Source: Siphonodentalium dalli
Taxonomy: Eukaryota > Mollusca > Scaphopoda > Gadilida > Siphonodentaliidae
Direction of reading: 5' to 3'
Assembly (NCBI GenBank): GCA_032622095.1
Contig: CP136069.1
Location: 3,189,566-3,253,565, forward strand
DNA length: 64,000 bases
Part shown: piece after piece, positions 2,308 to 64,000 of the stretch
Layout of the letters: each line of letters begins with the position of its first letter
Position numbering within the stretch: the stretch's first letter is position 1
Program-made: the position numbers and the translations under genes
The notes under the pieces: model-generated
Told to the model about the DNA's origin: nothing
The model's input: the letters and a program-made list of their open reading frames with translations, nothing else
Databases searched by the model: none

Positions 2308-4830
2308 TTATTCCTGATGATTCTTACCGAGATGAATGAGAGCATCAAGAATGTATGAAAGCTGTTTGTATCGGAGGAGATAATCGAGTGATGTCCCGAC
2401 ATTACTTATTAACGCTCCATGATGATTCTTACCGAGATGAATGAGAGCATCGAGAATGTATGAAAGCTGTTTGTATCGGAGGAGATAATCGAGTGCTGTC
2501 CCGACATTACTTATTAACGCTCCATGATGATTCTTACCGAGATGAATGAGAGCATCGAGAATGTATGAAAGCTGTTTGTATCGGAGGAGATAATCGAGTG
2601 ATGTCCCGACATTACTTATTAACGCTCCATGATGATTCTTACCGAGATGAATGAGAGCATCGAGAATGTATGAAAGCTGTTTGTATCGGAGGAGATAATC
2701 GAGTGCTGTCCCGACATTACTTATTAACGCTCCATGATGATTCTTACCGAGATGAATGAGAGCATCGAGAATGTATGAAAGCTGTTTGTATCGGAGGAGA
2801 TTATCGAGTGCTGTCCCGACATTACTTATTAACGCTCCATGATGATTCTTACCGAGATGAATGAGAGCATCGAGAATGTATGAAAGCTGTTTGTATCGGA
2901 GGAGATTATCGAGTGCTGTCCCGACATTACTTATTAACGCTCCATGATGATTCTTACCAAGATGAATGAGAGCATCGAGAATGTATGAAAGCTGTTTGTA
3001 TCGGAGGAGATAATCGAGTGCTGTCCCGACATTACTTATTAACGCTCCATGATGATTCTTACCGAGATGAATGAGAGCATCGAGAATGTATGAAAGCTGT
3101 TTGTATCGGAGGAGATAATCGAGTGATGTCCCGACATTACTTATTAACGCTCCATGATGATTCTTACCGAGATGAATGAGAGCATCGAGAATGTATGAAA
3201 GCTGTTTGTATCGGAGGAGATAATCGAGTGATGTCCCGACATTACTTATTAACGCGACATTACTTATTAACGCTCCATGATGATTCTTACCGAGATGAAT
3301 GAGAGCATCGAGAATGTATGAAAGCTGTTTGTATCGGAGGAGATAATCGAGTGATGTCCCGACATTACTTATTAACGCTCCATGATGATTCTTACCGAGA
3401 TGAATGAGAGCATCCAGAATGTATGAAAGCTGTTTGTATCGGAGGAGATTATCGAGTGCTGTCCCGACATTACTTATTAACGCTCCATGATGATTCTTAC
3501 CGAGATGAATGAGAGCATCGAGAATGTATGAAAGCTGTTTGTATCGGAGGAGATAATCGAGTGCTGTCCCGACATTACTTATTAACGCTCCATGATGATT
3601 CTTACCGAGATGAATGAGAGCATCGAGAATGTATGAAAGCTGTTTGTATTGGAGGAGATAATCGAGTGCTGTCCCGACATTACTTATTAACGCTCCATGA
3701 TGATTCTTACCGAGATGAATGAGAGCATCGAGAATGTATGAAAGCTGTTTGTATCGGAGGAGATAATCGAGTGCTGTCCCGACATTACTTATTAACGCTC
3801 CATGATGATTCTTACCGAGATGAATGAGAGCATCGAGAATGTATGAAAGCCGTTTGTATCGGAGGAGATAATCGAGTGATGTCCCGACATTACTTATTAA
3901 CGCTCCATGATGATTCTTACTGAGATGAATGAGTGCATCGAGAATGTATGAAAGCTGTTTGTATCGGAGGAGATTATCGAGTGCTGTCCCGACATTACTT
4001 ATTAACGCTTCATGATGATTCTTACCGAGATGAATGAGAGCATCGAGAATGTATGAAAGCTGTTTGTATTGGAGGAGATTATCGAGTGCTGTCCCGACAT
4101 TACCTATTAACGCTTCATGATGATTCTTACCGAGATGAATGAGTGCATCGAGAATGTATGAAAGCTGTTTGTATCGGAGGAGATAATCGAGTGCTGTCCC
4201 GACATTACTTATTAACGCTCCATGATGATTCTTACCGAGATGAATGAGAGCATCGAGAATGTATGAAAGCTGTTTGTATCGGAGGAGATAATCGAGTGCT
4301 GTCCCGACATTACTTATTAACGCTCCATGATGATTCTTACCGAGATGAATGAGAGCATCGAGAATGTATGAAAGCTGTTTGTATTGGAGGAGATTATCGA
4401 GTGCTGTCCCGACATTACCTATTAACGCTCCATGATGATTCTTACCGAGATGAATGAGAGCATCGAGAATGTATGAAAGCTGTTTGTATTGGAGGAGATA
4501 ATCGAGTGCTGTCCCGACATTACCTATTAATGCTCCATGATGATTCTTACCGAGATGAATGAGAGCATCGAGAATGTATGAAAGCTGTTTGTATCGGAGG
4601 AGATTATCGAGTGCTGTCCCGACATTACTTATTAACGCTCCATGATGATTCTTACCGAGATGAATGAGAGCATCGAGAATGTATGAAAGCTGTTTGTATC
4701 GGAGGAGATAATCGAGTGATGTCCCGACATTACTTATTAACGCTCCATGATGATTCTTACCGAGATGAATGAGTGCATCGAGAATGTATGAAAGCTGTTT
4801 GTATCGGAGGAGATAATCGAGAGCGGATTT
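2308..4830 (-). repeat. 105-bp minisatellite across exon 15 donor (24 units)
   Basis: About 24 tandem units of 105 bp, one with an extra 18 bp (a duplicated GACATTACTTATTAACGC near 3250). Each unit holds about 64 nt copied from the end of ASPM exon 15 (…[11 protein letters not shown]), the GTAAGAATC donor, and about 40 nt of intron. All lengths are multiples of three and no unit has a stop in the exon frame, so one frame stays open for 886 codons. Substitutions between units are both silent and amino-acid changing (Y/N, R/Q, A/S, G/S, G/E). The array ends with a degenerate unit near 2308. Confidence 0.95.
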
Positions 4831-4956
4831 TGTACGATTTCCAAGAGTTCTCTCCTCGGTGGCCAATCTGTTCACTTCTAATATCCGCTGTCTCACGAGG
4901 CTCAATCGCTTGTTGTTTCTCGATTCTTTTCTTACTTTGAAGCCCCTCCATGCCGA
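4761..4956 (-). CDS. ASPM: ASPM exon 15 of window: last IQ and start of C-terminal helical repeats
   Basis: This exon is 196 nt when the first donor is used (65 codons plus 1). It encodes [20 protein letters not shown], a basic linker, then [22 protein letters not shown], matching the start of the C-terminal domain of ASPM. In human ASPM the residue after this -HL is Glu, which fits the one-base overhang G before the donor CTCG/GTAAGA. The acceptor is CTTGACCTTTCAG/TCGGCA. The donor region is amplified 24 times downstream (2308-4830), so the true 3' end of the exon could be any in-phase donor as far as 2328. Confidence 0.92.
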
Positions 4957-13900: not shown

Positions 13901-16900
13901 TAACCAAAAATAATGCTAACCACAGTCAAATATAGTATAAAATTGCCCAAAACCTGTTATTTTGCCGGTTTGTCAAATATCTGACACAAAAAAGTCAATT
14001 GATTTTAAAGTTATCCATCTTCGTCCGCAAATTTGGTCCGAGACAGTATTCTTGTCGACTTTTATTGGGCCACTTGATATTCGAGGTGGTGAAAAATAAT
14101 AGATTTAAAAAATCGATATCTGATCACTTTGAGCTTTGATGGGTGGGTTCCTCGACTCAAATCAAATATTATTTACCCCTGAAGCCAAAGAAATAGTAAT
14201 TTATGAGGGTCTGATCGGATTGAGTACCTTCAAATTAAATTTAAAGGTTGTCAGACGAAACTGATCTGCAGATAACTCTTGGTTGAAATTTATACAATAA
14301 CTAACCTGAATCAAAATTATTTATACAATATCTAACCTGAATCAAAATTATTTATACAATAACTAACCTGAATCAAAATTATTTATACAATAACTAACCG
14401 GAATCAAAATTATTTATACAATAACTAACCTGAATCAAAATTATTTATACAATAACTAACCTGAATCAAAATTATTTATACAATAACTAACCTGAATCAA
14501 AATTATTTATACAATAACTAACCTGAACCAAAATTATTTATACAATAACTAACCTGAATCAAAATTATTTATACAATAACTAACCTGAATCAAAATTATT
14601 TATACAATATCTAACCTGAATCAAAATTATTTATACAATATCTAACCTGAATCAAAATTATTTATACAATATCTAACCTGAATCAAAATTATTTATACAA
14701 TAACTAACCTGAATCAAAATTATTTTTCCAATATGATCTTCACAAAGATTTTTGAGAAATTCATGTCTTTCTGCTTCTTGTAACTGAAATAATTAGAAAA
14801 AAATTAGATAAACAAGTACCAGAATGATATACAGTCTAAATGAAATTAAACCCAAGCCTGCAAATAGTGTGTCTGTCATTTGCAGAATGAGGTCCCCAGA
14901 GGGTGAATTTAGTGATGCTATCCCGGACAGCGGGCTAGCATCACCAAATTCACCCTCTGGATACCTCATTCTGCTTAGGCGTCATCTTCTGGGAAGTATC
15001 TATAGTATCAAATTAACATTGTTTTTAGTTACATTTCCCTTCCAGGAAGTTTCTATATCCCCTAATATGCAGAAGATAAAATTCATAATTGAGGTGCCCA
15101 ATGGGTGAACATCACCAACTTCAACCTTCTGATCCTAGGTCTGCCATAGCAGTTGATGGCCTTACCCAGAATGAGGTCCCCAGAGGGTGAATTTAGTGAT
15201 GCTAGCCTGCTATGCGGGATAGCGTCATTAAATTTACCCGCTATTTGCAGGAAATATGGCTTGTTGCCATTCATCGGAAAGGTCTCCCCGAGAGCTTTCC
15301 GATGAATGGCAACAAGCCATATTTCCGACTAAATCCTGAAAAGTTACCCATAATTCATCTGTGGTTATGGAGTCGATTACTTAGGGCATTACTGTATACA
15401 TAATAGAATTGTATTTGCAAAGATATTAAAAAAAATAGTGTTTTCTCCAAACCTATGGATATGACATCACTTGACAGATAAGGATTATTACAACTTCGAA
15501 TAATTGTATAGTAAATGCCAAGTGCATATTCTAAATTAGGAGATGATGCAACATGACCATTGTACATCTCAATAATATTATTATAACGTGCTTATCTCTA
15601 TATTTTCATTACATTGTTCTTTATTATATAACATTTGAATGGCAAAACTTGTATTCTGCATGTATAGTGAAGCAAACCTTGAAACAGCCATTTTATTGCC
15701 ATTTGTTTGGGGTAAATTCTGATATTTTTTGGCCAAATTAAATCCTCATTTTCTGGGCTCACAATTAATGAATAATATACATATATATACGGATGGTCTT
15801 CACGGTGGGTTTTGCTGCTAAAATAGTCACATCCGTTAAAACCGCCATAAACAGAAAGAATATTAAAATATAGACATATTATATTCGTATACCGATCATA
15901 AATATCGCGTAAATAGTATGTTATTGCCAAGTTCGTACGCTGTGTTAGTAAACAAAGGCCATCGTATTATGTTACAGAGCAGTACATAAAATAGAATGCG
16001 ATAAGCAAAACACTCAACACCGGATATCAATAATTTGGGTTTTTGAATTAGATTTGCCATTTTTGGGTACCGGTACAAAATTTTTTGGCCAAATTAATTT
16101 TTGCACGAAAGCCCATTTATAAAATCATTATAGTGAGTAAGAACATAATTGTAATCAGTGAATATACTTTAACCTTGTATTCTCTTATATATGCAAGGCT
16201 CCCTATGGGAGAGATATCACTCCTTCATGGGACAAAAGTAGGGAGAAGTGTCACATTTTAAGGAGATGTCTCCCAAGTCACCCTCTAGGCTGGTCCTCTC
16301 CCAAGTTACCATCTCTGCTGGTCCCGGTCTCCCAAGTCACCCTCTAGGCTGGACTTCCCCCAAGTCACCCTCTAGGCTGGTCCTCTCCCAAGTCACCCTC
16401 TAGACTGGTCTTCTCCCAACTTACCATCTTGGTTGGTACTCTCCCAAGTCACCCTTTTGGCTGGTCCCCACCCAAGTCACACTTTTAGATGGTCCCCTCT
16501 CAAGTCACCCTCTAGGCTGGTCCTCTCCCAAGTTACCATCTCGGCTGGCCCCGGTCTCCCAAGTCACCCTCTAGGCTGGACTTCCCCCAAGTCACCCTCT
16601 AGGCAGGTCCCCACCCAAGTCACACTTTTAGATGGTCCCCTCTCAAGTCACCCTCTCGGCTGGTCCCCTCCCAAGTTGGCCACTAGGCTGGTCACCCTCC
16701 CAAGTTGGCCTCTAGGCTGGTCACCCTCCCAAGTTGGCCTCTAGGCTGGTCCCCTACCAAGTTGGCCTCCAGCTATATAGGCTGGTCCCCTCGCAAGTCA
16801 CCCTCTAGGCTGGTTCCCTCCCAAGTCTCCCTCTAGGCTGGTTCCCTCCCAAGTATCACTCTAGGCTGGTCCCTGTCTCCCAAGTGACTTCTCGGCTGGT

Positions 16901-19900
16901 CCCCTCCCAAGTGACCATCTGGGCTGGTCCCCGTCTGCCAAGTCACCATCTAAGCTGGTTCCCTCCCAAGTCACCAAGTCTGCAAATAGTGTGTCTGTCA
17001 TTTGCAGAATGAGGTCCCCAGAGGGTGAATTTAGTGATGCTATCCCGCATAGTGGGCTAGCATCACCAAATTCACCCTCTAGATACCTCATTCTGCTTAG
17101 GCTTCTGGGAAGTATCTATAGTATTAAATTAACATTGTTTTTAGTTACGTTTTCCCTTCTGGGAAGTTTCTATATCCCCTAATTTTCAGAAGATAAAATT
17201 CATAATTGAGTGCCCAATGGGTGAACATCACCAACTTCAATTAGGAAACTAGGTCTACCATAGCAGTTGAGGGCCTTAGCAGAATGAGGTCCCCCAGAGG
17301 GTGAATTTAGTGATGCTAGCCCACTGTGCAGGATAGCATCACTAAATTCACCCTCTGGGGACCCCATTCTGCAAATGACACCATCTAGGCTGGTCCCTGG
17401 ATCCACTGACCTTGACATTTCTCTTTTCCACGTATTTTCTGTAGCTTCTTTGAATACATGTGGCAGCCCGAGTTTCATGGTGGAACACTTCATCTCTCTT
17501 ATTCCGCAGATACCGCCTCACGTTCCGCTGGATACATTTGGCAGCCTCGGTTTGTTGATAGTACACCTCTTCTAGTTTTTTCCGCAGATACCTTCTCACA
17601 TGACGCTGAAGCCTCACAACAGCCAGCAGCATCTTCTTATCCTGTCGTCGCTTCAGATAGCGACGGACGGTGGCCTGTAGTTTAACCACGGCTTTAATCT
17701 GCTCGTAACACTTCCTAGCACGGTAACCACGGTAAACGCTCTGGATCTTCACAGCAGCAGATCTGTTTCTTCCATTAAAACTTTTCAGTTTTTTCATAAA
17801 CAAATAGGATCGGACGTATCGCTGGATACAAACAATAGAGTCTTTGATAACCGTATATCGTTTCCTGGCAACACGCCCTCTGAACACTGACTGTATACAA
17901 ACGACGGCATGCAGAGTATTCAGGTAAATAGTCCGTTGTCGATAATTTCTGAAGGTTGCTTGGATACGAGTTGCAGCTTTTACACAAACGACGGCATGTA
18001 GAGTATTCAGGTAAATAGTTCGTTGTCGATACATTCTGAAGGTTGCTTGGATACGAGTTGCAGCTTTTACACAAACGACGGCATGCAGAGTATTCAGGTA
18101 AATAGTCCGTTGTCGATACTTTCTGAAGTTTGCTTGGATATGAGTTACAGCTTTTATCCTCTCATCAGATTTTCTTGTCTGCCATTTTCGGAAGTATTTC
18201 TGTATCTGAATAACAGACGACTTGATCTGTTGGTATCTCACGACATCTCTCCGTCTTTCCAAACAAGCCCTCCATCGCGTCTGTAGCTTAATAACAGAAG
18301 ATTTTATTTGTTGGTATCTCACGACATCTCTCCGTCTTTCCAAATAAGCCCTCCATCTCGTCTGTATCTGAATAACAGAAGATTTGATCTGTTGGTATCT
18401 CATGAGGTCTCTCTGTCTTTCCAAACAAGCCCTCCATCTCGTCTGAATAATTCTCACAGCTTTCTGGTATTCCCTGTATTTACGTCGACAATTTGTCATT
18501 CTGATGAGTGACTGCAGTTTAACAACCAACGTACGTGTCCGAATATAATCTTGATGGACAAGAAACCTCCTGATAAATGATTGAATTACAACCGCTGACT
18601 TAACCCGTTCCAGATAGGACTGACGAATTATTCTTCCACAACATACATTCCTCCAGTGAAGCTGTATGACCAGGGCGGCATACTTCTTGCAGAGAAACTC
18701 TTTTTGTTGCTTATAACCCCTGTATCGACATTGTATCAATACAATCTTTCTTCTGATTTCCATATACATTTTCCTTACTATGAACATTCTGTAATAGCTT
18801 TGAATTGTAACAGCGCATCGATTTAGTTTCAAAGCTTTTCGTTCTTGGAACTGCCTGAAATGTTTCTGCAGGCAGTTAATGGCCAATCTCCTCCGTTGGA
18901 AGTCAAATTGATCGTTTAATCCTTTCAGGCTAGCTAGATACACTTCCTTTGATTTTGCAGCGATGGCGTGCAGGTGTCTAACGCTCTCCATGTTACAGCT
19001 AATAATCCGACAGGACGTGAATGGCGTTGACGGCAGACGATGGTGATGAGGCTTCTCCATAAACTCTGCGAGAATAAACTGAACATGTCTGCTATCGCAT
19101 TCTTTAGAAATGAGTTGATTTTTTAATTTCGTGACATTTGAACGACGGAACCAATTCTGGATTATTACAGCTGCGTACACACTCTGCGCAGACTTCAGCC
19201 GGCATTGCTGACATCTGTACGCACTCTGAACAATTTTAGCAGATTTGTGTAAAAGAGCAATATGTTTTTGTATGAGATACCGTCTGAAGTGTTTCTGTAT
19301 CGTTACTGATGCCGAGACTAAGCGACTGAATTTCACCCTCGTCCTCCGACACAACTGGTTTGATCTAACACGACTCTGCATGCTGACAATCAAATGACGC
19401 GATTGAATGTACTTTCGTCTAACTGACAGCATTTTCATCCATGATTGGATCTTGATAGCAGACTTCATCTCAACTGCATACTTCTTCGCTTTCCAAGATC
19501 TGTATGCGGACTGGATTGTGACGCATGCGGATTTCTGTCGAACATACTCCCCGCGAGACTTCTGCATGTTTGATACAGATCTCATCCACCGTTGGATACT
19601 AATAGCGGCATTCAGTGTCTGCTTGTATTTTATTCTAGCTTGATGCATCCTAAAATTCTTCTGAAGCACAATGCTTGCCTGAAACATAAACCCCGAAATT
19701 AAATGTGAATATATAAATTATCATGGTCCACTGAGAATCAACTGATAAATTTAAACAGGTTTATTTATTTTAAACTTTTTTCTTATAGACAAACAACTTA
19801 ATCATTCACTCATAAATGCTCAACACCTTAGTTAACCCTTTACCCAACAAAATGCCCAAATAAAGCTTCAACAGCCTAAAATATATTCGGTCTGTCTCAA

Positions 19901-22900
19901 TAAAACCATACAAATATGGATATCATTGGAACCGGTTCATTGACCACATTGTGATGGTTAAAGTTATGCCCTGTGCCAATGCATTCTCTTATATATGCGA
20001 GTCGACCATAGGTCGCCTCGCATATATAAGAGAATGCATTGGCCTAAAAAAAAAATTATAATATTTTTCTACATTCTTTGACAATTTTATCATTTTTAAT
20101 ATGTGTTAAGCCAATGCATTCTCTTATATATGCGAGGCGACCTATGGTCGACTCGCATATATAAGAGAATGCATTGGCACAGGGCCGTTCTGTTGGGTAA
20201 AGGGTTAATAGAATATTTTAGAAGTTAATAGAATATTTTAGATTTTTGTTGTTCAGTTGTGATGGTATTTCTAATTCTCTGAAAGTAAGAAATTTCTCTA
20301 CAAGTAGCATAGTCCAATTTGACTTGATTTCTCACAGTGGCATCATGACAGGGTTCATACACCTAGCTGAGAGTAAAATTCCATAACTTTTAGATATATA
20401 TTGATTTCTCACAGTGGCACCATGACCGGGTTCATACACCTAGCTGAGAGTAAAATTCCATAACTTTTAGATATATATTGATTTCTCACAGTGGCATCAT
20501 GACAGGGTTCATACATCTAGTTGAGAGTAAAATTCCTTAACTTTTTCAAGACTTTCGGACAGATTTTTCAGTTAAAACATTCCATAACTTTTCCATACCT
20601 CGTACCTAGCTAAACAATGAGGAAGACCAATATATAGAGGATCTCACATGAGTTTCTAGTTTATACGGAATTTATCAACCGAGTTCACTAAATTCGATTT
20701 GAGCCGAGGTTTACTGAGGCTCAAATTGAATTTAGTGGACGAGGCTGATAAATTACGTATAAAATAGGACGAGTGTGAGATACCTTTTATCACATGATCA
20801 AATAAACCCGAAGCAACGCGCAATATTCATCGAAAACAACAATCATAAACTACAGCGATCGCAAGTTATTTGAAGAACGCCGTGACGTCATTGCACGCGC
20901 TGATATTAAACACATATACGTTAGTTAAAATGAGCCCTTTATCTGCAAAGATGCATTTAACTAATTAAGCTGATATGAACAATAAATCATAAATGGTTCG
21001 CATCTGCACCCAGAGTCTATAATTTCTAAAATCATTGGGAAAAAAATTACGATTTTCCGGTTATGGATCACGATTTATTTCGAACAAGGCAATACAACGA
21101 TTAAAACTATGTTTGCACCCTATAAAATGGTGCTCTCGGATAATTTTGTCGCCAAATATATTCAGTAACATCAGGTAACATCGGTGAATTTAGAGAGAGT
21201 ACGCATTGACATAATTGTTTTAGGTCCGTTCGATTCGCGTTCTGTTATTGCGTATATAAATGAGTTCGGGTAAGTGAGACAATTCGTGTTTCGGCATACC
21301 GTAAAACGTGTAGTTCCAACTATAACTACGGAGATGGTATCGTAAGCTTACACGATAAGAACGGAAAGTAACAGCGTTTATTTACCTAAGAACTCGGCCT
21401 TGGGATATGACTTTTCAAGACCTTGAATCTCAGGGGAGCTTATTTTCAAGACTTTTCCCATAGTAGGGTGAAAAAAGGTCCCATTTTCCAGAATTTTCAA
21501 GGGTATTGAATCGAAATGTTCGAATTCCATAACTTTTCCAGGATTCCAGACCCGCGTACGAACCCTGCATGATAAATTATGTCAGCTCAATTAGTATTTA
21601 TATTAATCTAGATACAAACATGCTTAAATTTAACATTGTAACGTGGATCACCGGAGACATAGCAGAAGTATATGAACTACAAACCTGCTTTAATTTAACG
21701 TAGTATCCGTGTATCACTCGGGCCTTCCACCAGGCCTGTATAGCTATAGCCGACCCGAGCTGTAGTATGTATGCTCTGCGATCTTGCAGCAGAAGGATCT
21801 TCAATCTGAGCCGCCTCTGCATCGAAATGATTACTCTTCTGGAGCAGTTGTATCTCCGTCGTTGAATCCATCCCCTAACTCTAGACTGCAGAAACATAAC
21901 CTGCCGTCTAATCCGCCGATATTCAGCCTGATCTCGATGCCGTCTCCACACTGCCTGGATGACAGTAGCGGCTCCTTCTCTTCTCTTCGTGTAACCTCTC
22001 CATGACCTCTGTATGATGACGCAAGCTTTTCGTTTCATTTTAAATCCACTCTCCGTCTTCTTCGTCAGTAGTCTCGATTTGTAGAATGTTTGAATAATGA
22101 CAGCAGCCTTTTTAAGTCTGTGATACCGCATCCTTACTGAATGCATTCTAGAATAACTTTGAATGATGATCGCAGCACACTTTTGAGTTAAATATAGTCT
22201 TTGCTGCTTATATGATTTATAACATTTCTGAATCATCAGGGCGGCAGTGTTCCACTTTGAGATTTCATACCGCTGTCTGTAACCTCTATATAATCTTTGT
22301 ATGACGACAGCAGCTAGTCGTCTCTGCTTCATATCGCATCTAACTCTGTGTCCTTTGTAATGTTTCTGGACAACAAATGTAGCATCCCTTAGTTTCTTAT
22401 ACAAATGCCTTTGCATATATCCTCTAAAATAGCGTTGTATGGTCACTGCACACAATTTAATCTTCTGAAACTCACGTCTGTTCCTGTATCCTCTGAAATA
22501 GCGTTGAAGGGTCAGAGCACATGATTTAATCTTCTGAAACCCACGTCTGTCCCTGTATCCTCTAAAATAGCGTTGTATGGTCACTGCACACAATTTAATC
22601 TTCTGAAACTCACGTCTATCCCTGTATCCTCTGAAATAGCGTTGTATGGTCACTGCACACGATTTAATCTTCTGAAACTCACGTCTATCCCTGTATCCTC
22701 TGAAATAGCGTTGTATGGTCAGAGCACATGATTTAATCTTCTGAAACTCACGTCTATCCCTGTATCCTCTGAAATAGCGTTGTATGGTCACTGCACACGA
22801 TTTAATCTTCTGAAACTCACGTCTATCCCTGTATCCTCTAAAATAGCGTTGTATGGTCACTGCGCATGATTTAATCTTCTGAAACTCACGTCTGTCCCTG

Positions 22901-40900: not shown

Positions 40901-43900
40901 CCTTATTATATTAAATGGTATGTTTCTCTAAAATTGACTGCTTGCTGCAGTGTTAGTAGCCCATGATAAAAAAATAAAATAAAAAATAAAAAATCGCCCT
41001 CCCTCATGCATTTAAAAAAAAAATGCCTGAGAAACAAAACATTGAGTTTGTGTAACCTAAAGCTTTTGATTGACAAGGTATTGAATACCTAGAATCACGG
41101 TAGAACTAACAAGAGGTTGCACTATGGGTGCTGAAATACCCCCATGGTGACAATCGAGATATGGACTGGTCGGAATCCAAATTGTGTAAAAACAAAATTC
41201 AAAACAAATTACTGGACAAACGAACGACGAACGGAAATCCAACATTTTCATATAAACAAAAAGGGATAACTTTTGAATGGAAAATGTGAAACATGTCGAT
41301 GAACCCTCTTTTGAAAGCACCCATGATGCCAAACCTACGTACCAAATTTAATTGAGATCCGATAACCAATGGTTGAGATATATGAATGGATGAACATAAA
41401 TCTAATATTTTCAGATCACCAAAGAGGGATAACTCTTGAATCGAAAGCACTCCTTGAGCCAAATCGGCATACAAAATTCTAACGATATCCGATAACCCAT
41501 GGTTGAGATATATGGACAGACGAACGAACACATGTAATCCATTATACCCCTCCCCATATCTTTTTGGGATGGGGGTATAATCATTTTTGTTTCTACAAGC
41601 ATGGTAAATATTGGTAAATCATGGTAAATATAAGTTGCTGACTGTAGTAATTAAATTTCTTACTTCCAAATATGGCTGGACTTGAGTCGAGAAAGCTGTC
41701 ATTGCCTGTGTTATTAAGATCTGCGATCTTCTCCTGGTGCGTCTGAGTTGTCTTATTGTTTATTAGATTCTTCGGCAGAAGTACTGGATGGTAGTGATGC
41801 ACGAGATAACACAATGCTCTCCCATCGGAGAAAGATACCGTGAAGTTCTCGATCTGTAAAAATACAAGAGATGGTAGTGGTGTCTGATGTATCACAGTTA
41901 TCTCACATCAGAGAAAGATACCGTGAAGTTCTCAATCTGTAAAAATACAAGAGATGGTAGTGGTGTCTGATGTATCACAATGTTCTCACATCAGTAAAGT
42001 TTTCAATCTAAAAGATGGACAAGCAAGATTAACCCCATTGAGAGCCTCACATAAACTGCAGCAGACGACACTCTGTAGTGCATGCTTCCATCTGTGTGAG
42101 GCTCCCTGTGAGTTAAACATTAAACCCTATATATCGCCTCGGTTATTAACCCTTTAGAGAGCCCCACATAAACTGCAGCAGACGACACTCTGTAGTGCAT
42201 GCTTCCATCTGTGTGAGGCTCCCTGTGAGTTAAACATTAAACCCTATATATCGCCTCGGTTATTAACCCTTTAGAGAGCCCCACATAAACTGCAGCAGAC
42301 GACACTCTGTAGTGCATGCTTCCATCTGTGTGAGGCTCCCTGTGAGTTAAACATTAAACCCTATATATCACCTCGGTTATTAACCCTTTAGAGAGCCCCA
42401 CATAAACTGCAGCAGACGACACTCTGTAGTGCATGCTTCCATCTGTGTGAGGCTCCCTGTGAGTTAAACATTAAACCCTATATATCGCCTCGGTTATTAA
42501 CCCTTTAGAGAGCCCCACATAAACTGCAGCAGACGACACTCTGTAGTGCATGCTTCCATCTGTGTGAGGCTCCCTGTGGGTTAAACATTAAACTTTAAAT
42601 ATTGCCTCGTTTATTAACCATTTCACTACGGGAGCTGTGCTGGTGCAGCATTAAAGATACGAATGGCCTTCGCGGCAGGTATTTGCTGACAAAATAGTAA
42701 CATCCGTTAAAACCGCCATAAACAGAAAGAATATTATAATATCGACAGATTTTGTTCTTATATCATTTCATAAATATTGTGTAAATAGTATGTTATTGTC
42801 AAGTTTGTATGCTTTGTTTGTAAACAAAAGCCAAATAATGTTACAGAATCTGTGTAGTTTGTAGCTTGCCAAAGTCCGATGAAGATTTACCGTTGTTTAT
42901 TGAGGGCGCTGTGGAAGACAGAGATAACATTAATTATTGTCGGCAAGCACAGCAAACTCATTCAAATCAAGCCTGCAAATAGCGTGTCTGTCATTTGCAG
43001 AATGAGGTCCCCAAAGGGTGAATTTAGTGACGCTAGCCCGCATAGTGCAGGATAGCATAACTAAATCACCCACTGGGGACCTCATTCTGCAAATGACAGA
43101 CTATTTGCAGACTTGATTCAATTCACATTAAGTCTCAATTTACAACAACGCATACTACCCATTGGCAGTTCAAAATCCAGCTATTAAATGTACATTAACT
43201 ACTTCATGATTGGGAAATGATCGGACAGAAAAAATGTACTACATGTAATCAGTATTGTCTTTGCAAAGATATTAAATTTTACTAATCCAGTTCGTATTTA
43301 CGTCACACACCAAATAAGGAATTTACGCTCTGTTTTACGATAATATTATTGTCACTTCTAAATTGTAGGTGCGCGCATGTTGTAAATACCTTATAAATTA
43401 CATCGAAATAAGGAATATTTACAAACATCGTAAAACACACGCACATCTAAATAAGGAGTTTACGCAATAGCAAGTCACATCAATAGCACAGAGAGTATGT
43501 TCATTGTAGCACAGAGAGTATGTTCATTGTAGCACAGAGAGTATGTTCATTGTAGCATGTCACATTAATAGCACAGAGAGTATGTTCATTGTAGCATGTC
43601 ACATTAATAGCACAGAGAGTATGTTCATTGTAGCACAGAGAGTATGTTCATTGTAGCATGTCACATTAATAGCACAGAGAGTATGTTCATTGTAGCATGT
43701 CACATTAATAGCACAGAGAGTATGTTCATTGTAGCACAGAGAGTATGTTCATTGTAGCATGTCACATTAATAGCACAGAGAGTATGTTCATTGTAGCACA
43801 GAGAGTATGTTCATTGTAGCATTAATTTCTTGTTCCTTTATGTTTATAATACAATTTTGTCGCAGCACGCTACATGGCGATTGCCTTTAGTTTATGACAA

Positions 43901-46900: not shown

Positions 46901-49900
46901 ATGAGGTCCCCAGAGGGTGAATTTAGTGATGCATCCCCACATAGCAGGCTAGCAGAATGTGGTACCCAGAGGGTGAATTTAGTGATGCATCCCCACATAG
47001 CAGGCTAGCAGAATGAGGTCCCCAGAGGGTGAATTTAGTGATGCATCCCCACATAGCGGGCTAGCATCACTAAATTCACCCTCTGGGGATATCATTCTGC
47101 AAATTACAGACCTAGCCGTTTGATGTGGGGAAATCACCCTCGCTCCCTCTTCCCACCTAGATTGAATTGATGGGATTATTTCGTTATCCTACTGTTAATT
47201 TGCGCATGCAATGAAAGATTAAAATGAACTAATATATCAATATCAGAGAGCGAAGATCAGAGAGCGAAGATCAAAGAGCGAAGATCTGAGAGCGAAGATC
47301 AGAGAGCGAAGATCAGAGAGCGAAGATCAGAGAGCGAATATCTGCGATCCTGGATTGGAATAGGTGAGCTATGTTTCCAAACTTTACAATGCAAACCTGT
47401 CATGATGGAATAAAATAATTTCTGGTCTCCAGAAACACTAATTTTTTTTGCAAATTGGGGTTAATGCCGAAGTCAACAATGCGTATCGGGCTCACAAGGC
47501 TATTTAGAAACAGATTATATAGCTGTTTTATCAATTATGTATACTCATTAAAGTGATGTGAAACACTCCGGTATGGTGATCAAATAGAAATGGAGAATAT
47601 TCTTGTTCAAAGTAGTTATTTTTACAAATATTATATCTAAATTGACAACACACACCGACATTCTTATATATTAATTAAATGCAGTGACTGTCGATGGCGA
47701 AATCATTATCGTTATTTTATCGCTGATAGAAGCGTCCCGATTCGAGTAGTAAATATTTACAATTTCGCGTAGTTCAGGCAATGTTTTCTATGGAGTGGTT
47801 TGGTCGATTTGCTTGAAATTTTCAGTGATGTTAGTAGAATGCTACATTCCTCCAGTTGGCATAGCACCTGAATACTAACTTATCAGTTTCACACACCCGA
47901 ACAAGTACATAATATGTCTTTAATGTTACTTGTGTTCTTTGTATTGTTTACATAACATTTCGAACCGACAAAAAATGGATGAGAAGGGCAATTACAGTTA
48001 ACTCTTTTGGTGGCTTGTAAACAAGCCTTGAAATAGGGTGTCTGTCATTTGCAGAATGATGTCCCCAGAGGGTGAATTTAGTGATGCTACCCTGCATAGC
48101 GGGTTAGCATCACCAAATTCACCCTCTGGGAACCTCATTCTGCTGAGGTGTAAGCAGAATGAGGTCCCCAGAGGGTGAATTTGGTGATGCTAGCCCGCTA
48201 TGCGGGGTAGCATCACTAAATTCACCCTCTGGGGACCTCATTCTGCAAATGACAGACACCCTATTTCAAGGCTTGCTTGGAAAACAAGACGAGAAATTGT
48301 ATAATTGGTCATGAAGCAGAACACAAGAGACTGGTTACATATTGTATGAGAGACTGATTATGCAGTGTATGTGTACAAGTTGATGTCCAACATGCTATCA
48401 ATTGCTGAAAAACCTTTGATAAATTGTGGAAAATGCCTAACAAGAGTGGGGCTCTTGAATTTGCTTCAGCTTGGATGTTGAACCTCAATTTCATTTAGAA
48501 TTTATAACCCATGCCTGATATATGCATGAACGATGGACAGACACACAGAAGAACAGATGGACGGACTAGGTCAATCCAGTAATAATGAACTTAATCATTA
48601 GGAAGGATCCCTACAATATTAACCCTTTCACTGCCAGGTCCGATTTTTGTATCAATCCATATACCCTGTGCCAATGCATTCTCTTATATATGTGAGTCGA
48701 CCATAGGTCGCCTTGCATATATAAGAGAATGCATTGGCCTAACAATTTTTTTTTTTACAATTTTAATAATTTATTCTTATATTCTTTAACAGACTTATTT
48801 TGTAGGTTTAGGGCCAATGAGATCGGCCCCTGGCACTCAAAGGGTTAAAGGCAAGTAGTCACTCAACCCAATATTATATGAGTACACAACACATCATACC
48901 TCTGACATCATCATTGAATACTTTTCGGAGTGCACGAAGCTAGTAGTCACTCAGTACACAACACATCATACCTCTGACATCATCACTGAATACTTTACGT
49001 AGTGCACGAAGCTAGTAGTCACTCAACCCAATATTATATGAGTACACAACGCATCATACCTCTGACATCATCACTGAATACTTTACGTAGTGCACGAAGC
49101 TAGTAGTCACTCAACCCAATATTATATGAGTACACAACACATCATACGTCTGACATCATCACTGAATACTTTACGTAGTGCACGAAGCTAGTAGTCACTC
49201 AGTACACAACACATCATACCTCTGACATCATCACTGAATACTTTACATAGTGCACGAAGCTAGTAGTCACTCAGTACACAACACATCATACCTCTGACAT
49301 CATCACTGAATACTTTACATAGTGCACGAAGCTAGTAGTCACTCAACCCAATATTATATGAGTACACAACGCATCATACGTCTGACATCATCACTGAATA
49401 CTTTACGTAGTGCATGAAGCTAGTAGTCACTCAGTACACAACGCATCATACGTCTGACATCATCACTGAATACTTTACGTAGTGCACGAAGCTAGTAGTC
49501 ACTCAGTACACAACACATCATACCTCTGACATCATCACTGAATACTTTACGTAGTGCACGAAGCTAGTAGTCACTCAACCCAATATTATATGAGTACACA
49601 ACACATCATACCTCTGACATCATCACTGAATACTTTTCGTAGTGCACGAAGCTCAGCTTTCGTTTTCAAGCTCCTTTCTAAATGAGCTACCTCCTCCTTC
49701 AACTTCCCGACGTCGAACAGTATATTAACCTGAAAGAAAGAATTTTTTTACCCTGTGCCAATGCATTCTCTTATATATGCAAGTTGACCATAGGTAGCCT
49801 CGCATATATAAGAGAATGCATTGGCCTAAAAAAAAATTATCATTTTTTTTAATAAATTTTTCTTACATAAAATAAAAAACATCCATTACCCTGCAGGGAG

Positions 49901-52900
49901 CCCCACACATATATAGAAGCATTTAGACGAGTGTCGTCTGCTCATGTTTGTCTGGGGCTCTGTATGGGTGAAATTATAAAATTGTTAAAGAATACAAGAA
50001 AAAATTATTAAAATTGTAAAAAATTGTTAGGCCAATGCATTCTCTTATATATGCGAGGCGACCTCTGGTCGACTCGCATATATAAGAGAATGCATTGGCA
50101 CAGGGTTAAATGGTCCCCACCCAAACAGTATATTCACCTGAAAGAAAGAAATTCATTCAAATTCCCGACATAGAACAGTATATTCAACTGAAAGAAAGAA
50201 ATTCATTCAACTTCCCTACGTCGAACAGTATATTAACCTGAAAGAAAGAAATTCATTCAAATTCCCGACATCGAACAGTATATTCACCTGAAAGAAAGAA
50301 ATTCATTTAAATTCCCGACGTAGAACAGTATATTCACCTGAAAGAAAGAAATTTATTCAACTCCCCTACGTCAAACAGTATATTAACCTGAAAGAAAGAA
50401 ATTCATTTAAATTCCCGACGTCGAACAGTATATTAACCTGAAAGAAAGAAATTCATTTAAATTCCCGACGTCGAACAGTATATTAACCTGAAAGAAAGAA
50501 ATTCATTCAACTCCCCTACGTCGAACAGTATATTGACCAGAAAGAAAGAAATTCATTTAAATTCCCGACGTAGAACAGTATATTAACCTGAAAGAAAGAA
50601 ATTCATTTAACTTCCCGACGTAGAACAGTATATTAACCTGAAAGAAAGAAATTTATTCAACTCCCCGACGTAGAACAGTATATTAACCTGAAAGAAAGAA
50701 ATATATTCAACTCCCCGACGTAGAACAGTATATTAACCTGAAAGAAAGAAATTTATTCAACTCCCCTACGTCGAACAGTATATTAACCTGAAAGAAAGAA
50801 ATTCATTCAATTTCTGTGACAAAAGCTTGTATTGTATAGCTATACTTATGATATATCAGTAAATTACAATGGATTGTATAGCTGTACCTACAGTAATGCC
50901 CTAAATAATCGACTCCTTAACCACAGAAGAATTATGTGTATTTTTCAGGATATAATTGGAAATATGGCTTGTTGCCATTCACCGGAAAGCTCTCACTGAG
51001 AGCTTTCCGACGAATGGCAACAAGCCATATTTCCGACTAAATCCTGAAAAGTTACCCATAATTCTGCTGTGGTTAAGGAGTTGATTATTTAGGGCATTAC
51101 TCTATGATATAATAGTATAATATTACTACATATCAGTACATCACAATTTATTGTATACTGGGTTTCTGCTACTAGAGCGGGCCATATTTACGACTAAATC
51201 CTGAAAAGTTAACCATAATTCTGCTGTGGTTAAGGAGTCGATTATTTAGGGCATTACTCTATATAATAGTATAATATTACTACATATCAGTACATCACAA
51301 TTTATTGTATACTGGGTTTCTGCTACTAGAGCGGGCCGGCCGTCCAGTGGTCTCATTCCCCTCCCCAATCCTGACTTCATATTGGCCACAAAATAGCCAC
51401 AGACCTAGCTCAGCCGCCTTTTTTACACAGGACAAGCGATCACAGACACTGATGATTAACAGATTGCAAGGAATCCTGCACTTGGTGCCTGAATAAGTCA
51501 TGATCAGTAGCGTGGACCACATGCAGTTATCTACACTATCCTGGGGTAACGCTTTGTCGGCGAATGTTTAGTAGTAATCAGCCTCTCGCATTTTAATTTA
51601 CCGTAGATTTCTGTCAATAAGTCCCAACTTTCTGACCCAATATTTCCCCTAAAAATGTGCATTATACAGCGGTAAGTCATTAGGGGGCTTAATTCTGAGC
51701 TATAACCATGAACACAGGTGAGTTTTGGCAATCGCTGTGACGAACGTACTGTACAGTGCATACTTTTTACCTCAAAACAAGGTCTCTATCAATGAAATGT
51801 TTATAATTAAAAATAAAACAATTAAAATATTAATAGTTACTATCAGTGCATTTATTCCTTATCCAATTAATACAAAATTATCCATTAAACAAATCCAGCA
51901 TGAGGTCATCTCCGTCTGAGGAATGTCTTTTAATTTGACACCTAATTGTTTTTATTGGTACTGCGAACAAAATGTATTATGAAAGCATGCAGAATGTGCA
52001 TCACGCTATATCATGTGACATGAGCTCTGCTCATGACGTCACACTGGTTACTGCTGGAGTACACTTGCCACTGAGCGTGACAATGTGTCTTTTGCCAACT
52101 GCGGTAGTTCCTTTGATGTTGGCTTTTAATATTGCTACTGTTATAAAAGTTGTTGTATCCACTGTATGTTGTGGTGCTTACATGCTTTTAGTTCATTAAC
52201 TTGAGATCAAAGAAAGATGATCGGTTTTAATTTGGTTTCTATACAAAGCTTCAATGTTCCTGCTTGTTGTTTCAAGTGCAAGGAAATGGCTACTTTTTTT
52301 TTGACGAGTGGGCGTGGTGAGAAGTGTCCCCGCGTGCACCGTGTGCGAATTTCACAGTTTCACGCCCCTCGGTTTAGATTCTGCGGCCCATTAGTGGATT
52401 TGGGGGTACACCATACACGTATAAACTAAAATCCACTTTTCGCTCAGATTTCCTCCAAATGTTGATCGGCGTTATTGATCCAAATTAATGCTGCCAAATG
52501 ATTATTTCTTTGTCTTCGGGGTGAAAAATATTTGATTAGAGTCGAGGAACCCACCCATCAAAGCTCAGAGTGATAACATATCGATTTTTGAAATTTGTTA
52601 TATCTCGAAATGTTTAATTATTTGTGGCCCAGAAACGAGTCATCAAACCGATTGTCTCAGACAAAATTGTGGATGACAATGGATAACTCTAAAATCAAGT
52701 GGTAAATACGGCCAAATTTTGTGATACGAAAGTGATAATACGGCCATATTTCTTTGAACAAAATCTTGATAAATAATGCGTTTTTCAGTAATAAACATCC
52801 AAATTTTCTCCCAACAGGGCGCCGGGTATGTGCTTCCCAAATATGGCTACATTCCCCCACCCTGTTGTAAAGCTAAACCTATGATATATTACTACTATAC

Positions 52901-55900: not shown

Positions 55901-58900
55901 GCATTCTCTTATATATGCGAGGCGACCTATGGTTGACTCGCATATATAAGAGAATGCATTGGCACAGGGCCCTTCTGTTGGGTAAAGGGTTAACATTCAA
56001 AATAATACAGCTCGCAAATTTATTGGCCTTCTCCATCACCATTATTGAGGTATCATTCTCAAAATCTATCCTTCTTGAATTCTGTGACATTATTTTGAAT
56101 AAGTATAATATATCCACAAAGATCACCCCAGAATATATAATCCTTGGTTTAGGAACAGACAAATCACACTTGGATATACTTGATATATGTTTTTTATTAT
56201 ACAAGAGATTTATATACTGTTGCAAAATAAGATCAATGAAGCCTACAGTCCAAGGACTTCTGGGGCGCATCAAACAATACAAAATTATAGAAACTGAATT
56301 TTCCTCAACTCTTGGGTCCAAGAAAGAGATATGTTGTAAGGAAAGATGGGATAAGCTAAGCAACATCTACTCCTGATAGACAAGATTTCTATATGATTCG
56401 GATATTAAAATGATGAGCTTATAACTTTATACATTACATATTCAAGTATGTTCCGCCTCCAGTAAGAAGTCAGAGAGCCGAGCAACATATCCTATGTTTA
56501 CGTCTCGAGCCGTCAACATAAGGGAAACCAAGACAATGGTTTCATCATCTCTCGCTGGCCTGCTTTTTTCATGATGTCATTTACGTTGAACAACGTTATG
56601 GCTTGTAATGCCACATATTCAACATCTATTTATTAGCAATAATTACCCAATGAAAACACTTTGATCATGTAGGAATAATTACCTAATGAAACGCCTTTAT
56701 CCTGTAGGAATTTGATAACCACCTCAATGTTATGTATCTTCTGTAGTCGACTGATTGCTGGGGCTCTCAGCCTCTTCGTGATGCTCCAGTCTCCAGTCAG
56801 TTGTTCTATGACTCGCCTGGGCATATAAAGTATGATAATTAAAGTGATGTGAAACACCCCTTCATGGTGATCAAATAAAATGGAAAATAAATTATAATTT
56901 TCCAACACACAGACCGTCATGCTTATATATTAATTAAATGCAGTGATACACGATGGTGAAATCGCCGAGAGTTGCGTCCTGAATCAAGAGGTAAATATTT
57001 ACATTTTAGCTTAGTTGAAACGACGTTATCTATGGAATGTATACCGATTTGCTTGAAATTTTCTGCAATGTTGTTAGTAGAATTGTACATTCCTCCAGTT
57101 GGCATAGCGTCTGAAAATTAACTTATCAATTTCACGCACCCGAACAAATACATATGTCTTTAATAATTTGGTATCATGTGCATATTTCATAGTATTTAAA
57201 TTGGCCTCATAGGTTTCTTAGATTGGTATTTAAATCTCACTACCGCCTCTGTACAGCACAAGTGACTCATCATGTGACGGACTCGTACTGAAATAATTGA
57301 AGACTTGCCCAACAGTCTTAATTAAATCAGTATATAAAATCGGTATAATTTATGAAATTTTCAGACAAGAACAAACAGAGGAATAAAACTTTAAAAAGAT
57401 GTAATCTGAATGTCCCGTATGTGAGACCTTCAAGTGTAACATCATACAAAATCTATTTTTAACATCACTTTTCGAATCATTTGACTGAGCAATAAGAGCA
57501 TCACTTGGGCGTGAAAAAATACGCCTGTGGTAATTACAAAGGACCATAACTCTGGAGAAAATTGGTGGGCGGAACACAAATCTACATAACAAATTTCATT
57601 CCAATCCAAGCCTTGAAATAATGCGTCTGTCATTTGCAGAATGAGGTCCCCAGAGGGTGAATTTAGTGATGCTACCCCGCGTAGTGGGCTAGCATCACCA
57701 AATTCACCCTCTGGGGACCTCATTCTGCTTACACCTCAGCAGAATGAGGTTCCCAGAGAGTGAATTTGGTGATGGTCTTATAACCTACTAGTAAAGTTAT
57801 CATCCAGAATGGATGTTTAAAAAATTTGAAATTCAAATGTGGCATATAAACTAAACTTTGAAAATTGGGGCATAATTAGTGTTGAAACGATTAGTGAATT
57901 TCAGAGTCGACTAGTCGAGACCCAAAAGTCGCGTTGCGTCGACTAGTCGGTACCCGATATCAAAACTTTCAAACATAACATGGTACGGAAAATTCATCGT
58001 ACATGGCGTACACTGATGACTGATGCGATGACGGTCTATTGCGTAGCGCATTTCCCTGCATAGACACCAATTTATTTGGGAAATAATACTGTAAACATCT
58101 TGATATTTATCCAACACACTGAATGTAATTATATAATTAGACATGTGGTGGATAATGATTAGAAACTCGATCATTTATACAGGTTTTAAATTTAATATCT
58201 GCGTTCGAGATTTCGTTTATTCACGTGATCACCAATAAACCGGTGCCGAGCGGTGTCACTATAAAATGTTAATGTTCCGACTAAATACGCCCTATAGAAT
58301 AGGCTATGTTGTAGAATACGATAGCCAGTTCTTAATGTCAGTATCATTTATATACGGTAGCAACAATGATGTCACCTTAAGCAACCTTCAATTGATCAAT
58401 TGAAATATACACAGTGTCTAGATCAAAGCGGTCTCCGACAAACGATAAAGCCGCGTCAATCATTGCCATCATGTCGCAGTGATGTCTTTGACCTCAACGA
58501 CGAGTGAGACATTGTGTTGTCAATTTCATTCTTTCGATTAATAGTCGGGTCACTGTGTGTGTCTATACTAGTAACACTGTCAATTCCGGGTGTCACCAAA
58601 CGTAAAACTTACCGTAACTTACACGCAGTTAACACCGTTTATGTCGGAATCGATCTTGAAAACGTTATACATGGAACTAATACACTATGTTCCGATTAGT
58701 CGACGACAAAATTCAGAGTCGACGTTCTGACATTTCAGCGTTGTCTACGACTAGTCGATTAATCGTTTCAACCCTAGGCATAATGATATGTGTGTTGCAT
58801 AACAACTCCTATCAAACATCAAAAAGATCAAAACTTCCAGATAATTTCTCAGTAAATTTTTATTGTAAATTAAATTCATTTGATATATAACAAATTATAT

Positions 58901-63075: not shown

Positions 63076-64000
63076 CTAAAATGATAAACAAATTAACTCT
63101 CCACATAGCCTAACATGTTAGACAAATTAACTCTCCACATAGCCTAAAATGATAAACTGATTAAACCCCCGCATAGCCTAAAATGATAAACAAATTAACC
63201 CTCCGCATAGCCTAAAATGATAAACTGATTAAACCCCCGCATAGCCTAAAATGATAAACAAATTAACCCTCCGCATAGCCTAAAATGATAAACTGATTAA
63301 ACCCCCGCATAGCGTAAAATGATAAACTGATTAAACCCCTGCATAGCCTAAAATGATAAACCCCCGCATAGCCTAAAATGATAAACTGATTAAACCCCTG
63401 CATAGCCTAAATTGATAAACTGATTAAACCCCCGCATAGCCTAAAATGATAAACTGATTAAACCCCCGCATAGCGTAAAATGATAAACTGATTAAACCCC
63501 CGCATAGCCTAAAATGATAAACTGATTAAACCCCCGCATAGCCTAAAATGATAAACTGATTAAACCCCTGCATAGCCTAAAATGATAAACTGATTAAACC
63601 CCCGCATAGCCTAAAATGATAAACTGATTAAACCCCTGCATAGCCTAAAATGATAAACTGATTAAACCCCTGCATAGCCTAAAATGATAAACTGATTAAA
63701 CCCCCGCATAGCCTAAAATGATAAACTAATTAAACCCCCGCATAGCCTAAAATGATAAACTGATTAAACCCCCGCATAGCCTAAAATGATAAACTGATTA
63801 AACCCCCGCATAGCCTAAAATGATAAACTGATTAAACCCCCGCATAGCCTAAAATGATAAACTGATTAAACCCCCGCATAGCCTAAAATGATAAACTAAT
63901 TAAACCCCCGCATAGCCTAAAATGATAAACTGATTAAACCCCTGCATAGCCTAAAATGATAAACAAACAAACCCTCCGCATAGCCTAAAATGATAAACAA
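63072..64000 (-). repeat. 34-bp minisatellite of exon 1 acceptor (about 27 units, continues off window)
   Basis: On the minus strand each unit contains TTTATCATTTTAG/GCTATGC, the exact acceptor and first 7 nt of window exon 1, joined to a G-rich stretch. Variants include CTGATTAAACCCC versus CAAATTAACCCTC on the plus strand and one shortened unit near 63360. The array is truncated by the window edge. Confidence 0.93.

What the first reader, a model, noticed from the sequence alone, without database searches (positions are those of the whole stretch)
2308..64000. Minisatellites repeatedly nucleated on splice junctions of one gene
At seven exon edges of this ASPM gene the tandem unit straddles the exon-intron boundary, so the donor or acceptor itself is amplified: exon 15 donor, exon 13 donor, exon 5 donor, exon 5 acceptor, exon 1 acceptor, exon 3 donor and exon 7 acceptor. 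The units are unrelated in sequence and have different periods (105, 31, 72/88, 50, 34, 36, 83 bp), so this is not one mobile repeat. About 28 internal edges are visible, so roughly a quarter are affected. Possible reasons: a duplication covering only one splice site is tolerated because a nearby copy still works; a replication or R-loop mechanism favours exon edges; or extra sites are selected for. Direct reading shows the pattern; the cause is inference.
Basis: partly seen in the sequence, partly recalled or inferred. Interest (0 to 1): 0.92.

Follow-up and report, generated by a model that had tools for sequence, protein, structure and literature searches.

The report
Tandem-repeated splice junctions in ASPM
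In this animal's ASPM gene seven exon-intron borders have been copied over and over in tandem, and the same happens in other genes of the same genome, most likely because repeats that cover just one border are harmless as long as the copy next to the exon is still used.

Summary
All seven arrays are real: each unit carries an exon-intron junction. Fifteen exons joined at the exon-proximal copies give one 2,220-residue frame without stops. It is not peculiar to ASPM: in sampled genes of the same genome (dyneins, CCTs, kinesins, myosins) 15 of 330 exon edges have another copy of the junction within 330 bp, some with 5-13 spare copies. With one unit counted per array, 2.9% of intron sites and 0.6% of exon-interior sites are amplified. 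So junctions are amplified roughly like introns (ratio 1.4-2.6 by threshold), well above coding sequence. Best reading: a tandem duplication across one splice site leaves the protein unchanged when the exon-proximal copy is used; spares fall into the intron. Strong nucleation on splice sites is not supported; a twofold excess is possible. ASPM exceeds its background (6 of 30 against 1.7 expected) but was picked post hoc. The kind is known: 'mirages' of amphioxus genes and, by title only, a human minisatellite with multiple donors. Which copies are spliced needs RNA.

The parts
2315..4821 (-). 105-bp array, 24 copies, over the exon 15 donor (ATCTCG|GTAAGAATC); every copy has a GT donor and all stay in one open frame
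4761..4956 (-). exon 15, ending at the exon-proximal donor
   Evidence: aligns to a recalled human ASPM segment, 45% identity over 69 columns
14288..14733 (-). 31-bp array, 14 copies, over the exon 13 donor (ATTCAG|GTTAGT)
14709..14783 (-). exon 13
41810..41994 (-). 83-bp duplication (plus a degenerate further copy) over the exon 7 acceptor; the spare copies carry stop codons
41664..41853 (-). exon 7
48881..49653 (-). 72/88-bp array, 10 copies, over the exon 5 donor (TCAGAG|GTATGATG)
50124..50814 (-). 50-bp array, 14 copies of the exon 5 acceptor (TTTCTTTCAG|GTTAATATAC), about 400 bp upstream of exon 5
49612..49729 (-). exon 5
56634..56711 (-). 36-bp duplication over the exon 3 donor (CATTAG|GTAATTATT), in frame and open
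56683..56816 (-). exon 3
63069..63998 (-). 34-bp array (27 spare copies in the window, running past its end) over the acceptor of the first visible exon (TTATCATTTTAG|GCTATG)
62945..63075 (-). first visible exon
22418..23190 (-). 69-bp (23-codon) array wholly inside exon 11, IQ motifs
17897..18156 (-). 87-bp array inside exon 12, IQ motifs
18199..18445 (-). 81-bp array inside exon 12, IQ motifs

Best explanation
These are ordinary tandem duplications that expanded into minisatellites in an animal genome with a high load of local tandem repeats. When the duplicated stretch covers exactly one splice site, the copy touching the exon still has the complete exon and its site, and the other copies lie on the intron side. 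If the spliceosome uses the exon-proximal copy, mRNA and protein are unchanged whatever the unit length, so such duplications persist like intronic ones. Duplications inside coding sequence persist less often, and in ASPM the three seen have units divisible by three. Shown here: anatomy, intact frame with the proximal copies, occurrence in other genes, rate close to that of introns. Inferred: which copy is spliced, and near-neutrality.
For: With proximal copies the 15 exons give one 2,220-residue frame with no stop. In 5 of 7 ASPM arrays no spare copy is in frame and open; E3 (1 of 1) and E15 (23 of 23) are the exceptions. In the sample the spares lie on the intron side in 16 of 16 cases, one of which has one further copy on the exon side; in 15 of 16 no spare copy is in frame and open (in the 16th, 1 of 7 is). 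Edges 15 of 330, introns 2.86%, exon interiors 0.59%. For the 216 dynein and CCT edges the first-copy rate at 6 and 8 mismatches is roughly flat from the edge to 500 bp into the intron. Units over junctions in ASPM have any length (31, 34, 36, 50, 72/88, 83, 105) while the three arrays wholly inside its exons are 69, 87 and 81, multiples of three; units inside exons of the sample were not checked for this. Dynein and CCT junction arrays look the same.
Against: No RNA. At strict thresholds edges exceed introns (13 of 330 against 1.54%, P 0.002 at 3 mismatches); one constrained copy per junction may explain this (inference), but a real excess of up to about twofold is not excluded. ASPM is above its own background and above the sample: 5 of 30 v 15 of 330 at a 330-bp reach, Fisher P 0.018; 6 of 30 v 10 of 216 at 900 bp, P 0.0067. 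The open frame is partly built in: edges were placed with an eye to the frame, and the exon 6 acceptor, not an array edge, was moved because the first choice broke it. The exon-interior figure rests on 22,920 positions.
Confidence: 0.75

Rival explanations
1. Splice junctions favour the start or growth of tandem duplications (for example through replication or R-loop stress at exon edges, or duplications primed by AGGT-like motifs).
For: ASPM 6-7 of 30 edges with 1.7-1.8 expected and more than the sample; at 3 and 4 mismatches sample edges are 2.6 and 2.0 times intron sites; for dynein and CCT genes the first-copy rate within 30 bp of the edge is 2.8-3.2% against 1.6% further in at 4 mismatches, edge itself 8 of 216, P 0.027.
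Against: At 6-8 mismatches the sample excess is 1.4-1.6 fold, P 0.055-0.09, and the profile into the intron is flat, with the bin at 120-150 bp higher than the edge (P 0.13 and 0.22 for the edge). ASPM was chosen post hoc. Units differ in sequence and length.
Confidence: 0.17
2. Extra splice sites are kept by selection, as spares, decoys or a source of variable protein length. The exon 15 array could add 0 to 23 units of 35 residues without breaking the frame.
For: All 23 spare exon 15 donors keep GT and the frame is open throughout; one unit carries an 18-bp in-frame duplication. E3 is also in frame. Acceptor dinucleotides in ASPM spares agree better than the rest of the junction (0.96 v 0.87).
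Against: In the sample the difference is small (acceptors 0.95 v 0.91, donors 0.93 v 0.95). Variants among exon 15 units, counted on 21 of the 24, are 7 nonsynonymous and 4 synonymous against 226 to 74 possible, so no sign of protein constraint. Five of seven ASPM arrays, and 15 of 16 sample cases, have no spare copy that is in frame and open.
Confidence: 0.06
3. The arrays are assembly errors.
For: Not testable here: no reads or second assembly.
Against: Copies differ by substitutions and small indels, the same anatomy appears on several chromosomes with different units, and the ASPM frame is intact.
Confidence: 0.02

Closest known systems
[quoted passage not shown] similar repeats in PGBD5); passages read in PMC3087553 and PMC3902484
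   Same: Tandem units spanning a donor or an acceptor, many with AG/GT signals, units of different length (10-72 bp in Adh3, 150-160 bp in BflGb6 as quoted there), authentic copy next to the exon.
   Different: Here seven in one gene and a sampled rate over four gene families. Undisturbed splicing and length instability are reported there, not tested here.
[quoted passage not shown] only the title seen, in the reference list of PMC2572611)
   Same: A minisatellite whose unit contains a splice donor, as the exon 15, 13, 5 and 3 donor arrays here.
   Different: One interferon-induced transcript; the gene name and details beyond the title are recalled, not read.
Intron gain by tandem duplication of AGGT-containing segments (Rogers model; discussed in a passage of PMC3087553; potato RdRp case seen as search listing, PMC4974935)
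   Same: A tandem duplication creates new splice-site pairs.
   Different: Here existing junctions are amplified; no new intron was shown.

Membership tests
mirage minisatellites (tandem-duplicated exon-intron boundaries) | tandem repeat whose unit spans an exon-intron boundary | tested here: met
   7 of 7 arrays read base by base; copy test 6-7 of 30 edges
mirage minisatellites (tandem-duplicated exon-intron boundaries) | many, not all, units keep GT or AG | tested here: met
   85 of 88 spare copies in ASPM and 56 of 64 intron-side copies in the 16 sample cases (sums over, checked)
mirage minisatellites (tandem-duplicated exon-intron boundaries) | both donor and acceptor borders affected | tested here: met
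   ASPM 4 donors and 3 acceptors; sample 9 of 163 donors and 6 of 167 acceptors
mirage minisatellites (tandem-duplicated exon-intron boundaries) | regular splicing is not disturbed | not testable with these tools
   no RNA; indirect support only: open 2,220-residue frame with proximal copies
mirage minisatellites (tandem-duplicated exon-intron boundaries) | copy-number variation between haplotypes or cells | not testable with these tools
   one assembly only
mirage minisatellites (tandem-duplicated exon-intron boundaries) | described in cephalochordates | tested here: inconclusive
   organism unnamed; no GFP-family match and no mollusc haemocyanin match, but neither shows absence
ASPM gene | ASH domain, calponin-homology region, IQ repeats, conserved C-terminal exons, one strand | tested here: met
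   ASH match on the same strand, IQ motifs, exons aligning to recalled human ASPM segments in order; the calponin-homology region was seen only through those alignments, not by its own domain model

The most novel reading that the evidence does not exclude
Splice junctions are about twice as prone to tandem amplification as intron DNA in this genome, a few percent of all junctions carry decoy arrays that the spliceosome must ignore, and some arrays, above all the in-frame exon 15 array of ASPM, are used to make proteins of variable repeat number.
Probability: 0.15. Interest if true: 0.75.

Novelty: new member of a known kind. Interest (0 to 1): 0.5.

Why it matters
If the sample is representative, a few percent of the exon edges of this genome carry repeated, near-identical splice sites, up to about two dozen in a row. 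That is a natural series for asking how the spliceosome chooses among near-identical sites at different distances, and for tracing intron movement and gain. It also suggests that structural variants covering a single splice site can be neutral, which bears on how such variants are scored. The most surprising part of the claim, nucleation on splice sites, shrinks to at most about twofold when intron sites are counted in the same way.

Tried and rejected
Raw overlap (a quarter of edges against a quarter of the window in arrays) was rejected as the null because long arrays dominate it; sites were counted one unit per array instead. The weighted offset profile was set aside near the edge because it down-weights the authentic copy; the first-copy profile (dynein and CCT edges only) replaces it. 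Taxon markers (GFP, mollusc haemocyanin) gave no match and no identification; the control genomes are prokaryotes, so absence is not shown. ASPM exons upstream of the window were not delimited, so their edges are not counted. Downstream, three places in L004 align to the recalled C-terminal segment; of arrays with period 20 or more L004 has only two short ones (23 bp x 2.0, 20 bp x 2.2), away from those places, and the exact edges there were not tested. A first exon 6 acceptor (44912) broke the frame and was moved to 44877; neither position has copies, so no count changed. No whole-genome count on annotated junctions was possible.

Rows dropped before counts: 42 of 53 matches used (2 long open matches and 9 from second gene copies dropped), 75 of 96 (matches in further gene copies and isolated ones dropped), 12 of 85 (many of the rest are from a cluster of similar myosin copies on C4), 48 of 123. 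Edges at ends of domain models were left out: 330 edges of 177 exon matches remain. Edges were placed by a simple splice-site score near the domain match, not by RNA; some low-scoring ones may be misplaced (278 of 330 score above 3; of these 14 are amplified at 6 mismatches). One amplified acceptor (a copy 424 bp away) falls outside the 330-bp reach.

Full report
What was checked. The window is C9:3189566-3253565 of a 2.23-Gb assembly of 9 contigs. On its minus strand lies an ASPM gene. An ASH domain match lies about 22 kb beyond the window on the same strand, the two big exons are full of IQ motifs, and exons align in order to human ASPM segments that I recalled and used as locator queries. 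Fifteen exons with GT and AG sites were placed by eye and by frame.

The arrays. Tandem Repeats Finder lists 31 merged arrays of period 20 or more, 16.7 kb, a quarter of the window. Seven carry an exon edge in the unit, three lie wholly inside exons, the other 21 lie outside the placed exons. The seven claimed cases hold when read base by base. Units range from 31 to 105 bp and look unrelated to each other. In the exon 5 acceptor case the array is cut off from exon 5 by palindromic insertions, but exon 5 begins with the same junction.

What the copies would do. Joining the 15 exons at the exon-proximal copies gives 2,220 codons without a stop. One edge that is not in an array, the exon 6 acceptor, was moved to reach this. 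For the spare copies I asked whether using one instead would keep the frame. At E1, E5 acceptor, E5 donor, E7 and E13 none of the spare copies (27, 14, 9, 1 and 13) is in frame and open; at E3 the single spare and at E15 all 23 are. The variants among exon 15 units, counted on 21 of 24, are 7 nonsynonymous and 4 synonymous with 226 and 74 possible, so the array looks unconstrained although it is open.

Chance within the window. Counting each site by whether its 30-mer has a second copy within 900 bp at 6 mismatches or fewer, and each array as one unit, 5.5% of the window's sites are amplified, and 6 of 30 edges (7 at 7 mismatches, 8 at 8 mismatches, the eighth being the E11 donor). Expected 1.66, 1.82 and 2.03; shifting the edges along the collapsed window reaches the observed number in 0.75%, 0.3% and 0.15% of 2,000 shifts. 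With a 330-bp reach it is 5 of 30 at 6 mismatches, P 0.06. The window was selected for this pattern, so these values overstate the case.

The rest of the genome. I took exon matches of dynein heavy chains and CCT chaperonins and later kinesins and myosins, placed their edges and applied the same test. Ten of 216 edges in the first set have a second junction within 900 bp; 15 of 330 in the full set within 330 bp: dynein donors 1 of 70, acceptors 4 of 66; CCT donors 2 of 39, acceptors 2 of 41; kinesin donors 5 of 42, acceptors 0 of 48; myosin donors 1 of 12, acceptors 0 of 12. Clear arrays include a dynein acceptor in 61-bp steps with 13 spare copies, dynein acceptors in 68-bp and 65-bp steps with 5 spare copies each, and a CCT donor in steps of mostly 39 bp with 7 spare copies; others are single duplications. 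In 16 of 16 cases the spares lie on the intron side (one has one further copy on the exon side), and in 15 of 16 no spare is in frame and open. ASPM remains above the sample: 5 of 30 v 15 of 330 at the 330-bp reach, Fisher P 0.018, and 6 of 30 v 10 of 216 at 900 bp, P 0.0067, again post hoc.

Is the junction special? In the same loci 2.86% of intron sites and 0.59% of exon-interior sites are amplified. Edges at 4.5% are near the intron value (binomial P 0.055). Over thresholds of 3 to 8 mismatches in 30 the ratio of edges to introns runs 2.56, 1.99, 1.74, 1.59, 1.46, 1.42 with P 0.002, 0.016, 0.034, 0.055, 0.088, 0.090. A higher ratio at strict thresholds is what one constrained copy per junction would give (inference), but a real excess of up to about twofold stays open. 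For the dynein and CCT edges the first-copy rate from the edge to 500 bp into the intron is roughly flat at 6 and 8 mismatches (edge P 0.13 and 0.22); at 4 mismatches it is about double within 30 bp of the edge (edge P 0.027). Spare splice dinucleotides agree with the authentic copy about as well as their neighbours in the sample (donors 0.93 v 0.95, acceptors 0.95 v 0.91); in ASPM they agree somewhat better (donors 1.00 v 0.97, acceptors 0.96 v 0.87), which was not tested further.

Conclusion. The simplest account is neutral. A tandem duplication across one splice site leaves the exon and its nearest site intact and drops everything else into the intron, so it is as harmless as an intronic one provided that the proximal site is used. 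In a genome with many minisatellites a few percent of junctions are then expected to be amplified, and that is what the sample shows. ASPM is an unusually rich example. Which site is used is inferred from the frame, not shown.

Against what is known. In amphioxus such structures are called mirages; the passages read say that they span 5' or 3' boundaries, often contain AG/GT signals, appear not to disturb regular splicing and vary in length (PMC3087553; PMC3902484). A human minisatellite with multiple splice donors is known by title only here. My literature searches listed no paper that by title or abstract start gives a genome-wide count of such structures; they cover open-licence papers only and show capped lists.

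Noticed in passing
window 49740-50130 and other places: Palindromic, MITE-like element (GCCAATGCATTCTCTTATATATGCGAG...), its translated trace recurring in the reading frames listed; insertions of it separate the exon 5 acceptor array from exon 5.
   Followed up: no
window 46000-47066: 56-bp array x19 made of part of a second dispersed repeat (CAGAATGAGGTCCCCAGAGGGTGAATTTAGTGATGC) that also occurs in inverted orientation elsewhere in the window (for example 48051-48246).
   Followed up: no
window 10365-13739: Homogeneous (97%) array of 64 bp x52 between exons 13 and 14.
   Followed up: no
window 22418-23190, 17897-18156, 18199-18445: Arrays inside the IQ exons (69, 87, 81 bp), suggesting recent IQ-repeat expansion of ASPM in coding sequence.
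   Followed up: partly
window 39204-39899 and 59321-59980, plus strand: Two open frames of 231 and 219 residues inside ASPM introns on the opposite strand; possibly mobile-element genes.
   Followed up: no
window 3132-3378: One exon 15 unit carries an 18-bp in-frame internal duplication, giving a 123-bp unit.
   Followed up: no
G000:C4:274219791-275508405: Eleven matches to the same myosin-head segment within 1.3 Mb, a cluster of similar myosin gene copies (copies not aligned).
   Followed up: no
G000:C7:133433378-133529057, C1:54085903-54280437, C1:68366105-68562697: CCT chaperonin exons matched in pairs with equal or nearly equal scores, suggesting local duplications of whole or part genes.
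   Followed up: no
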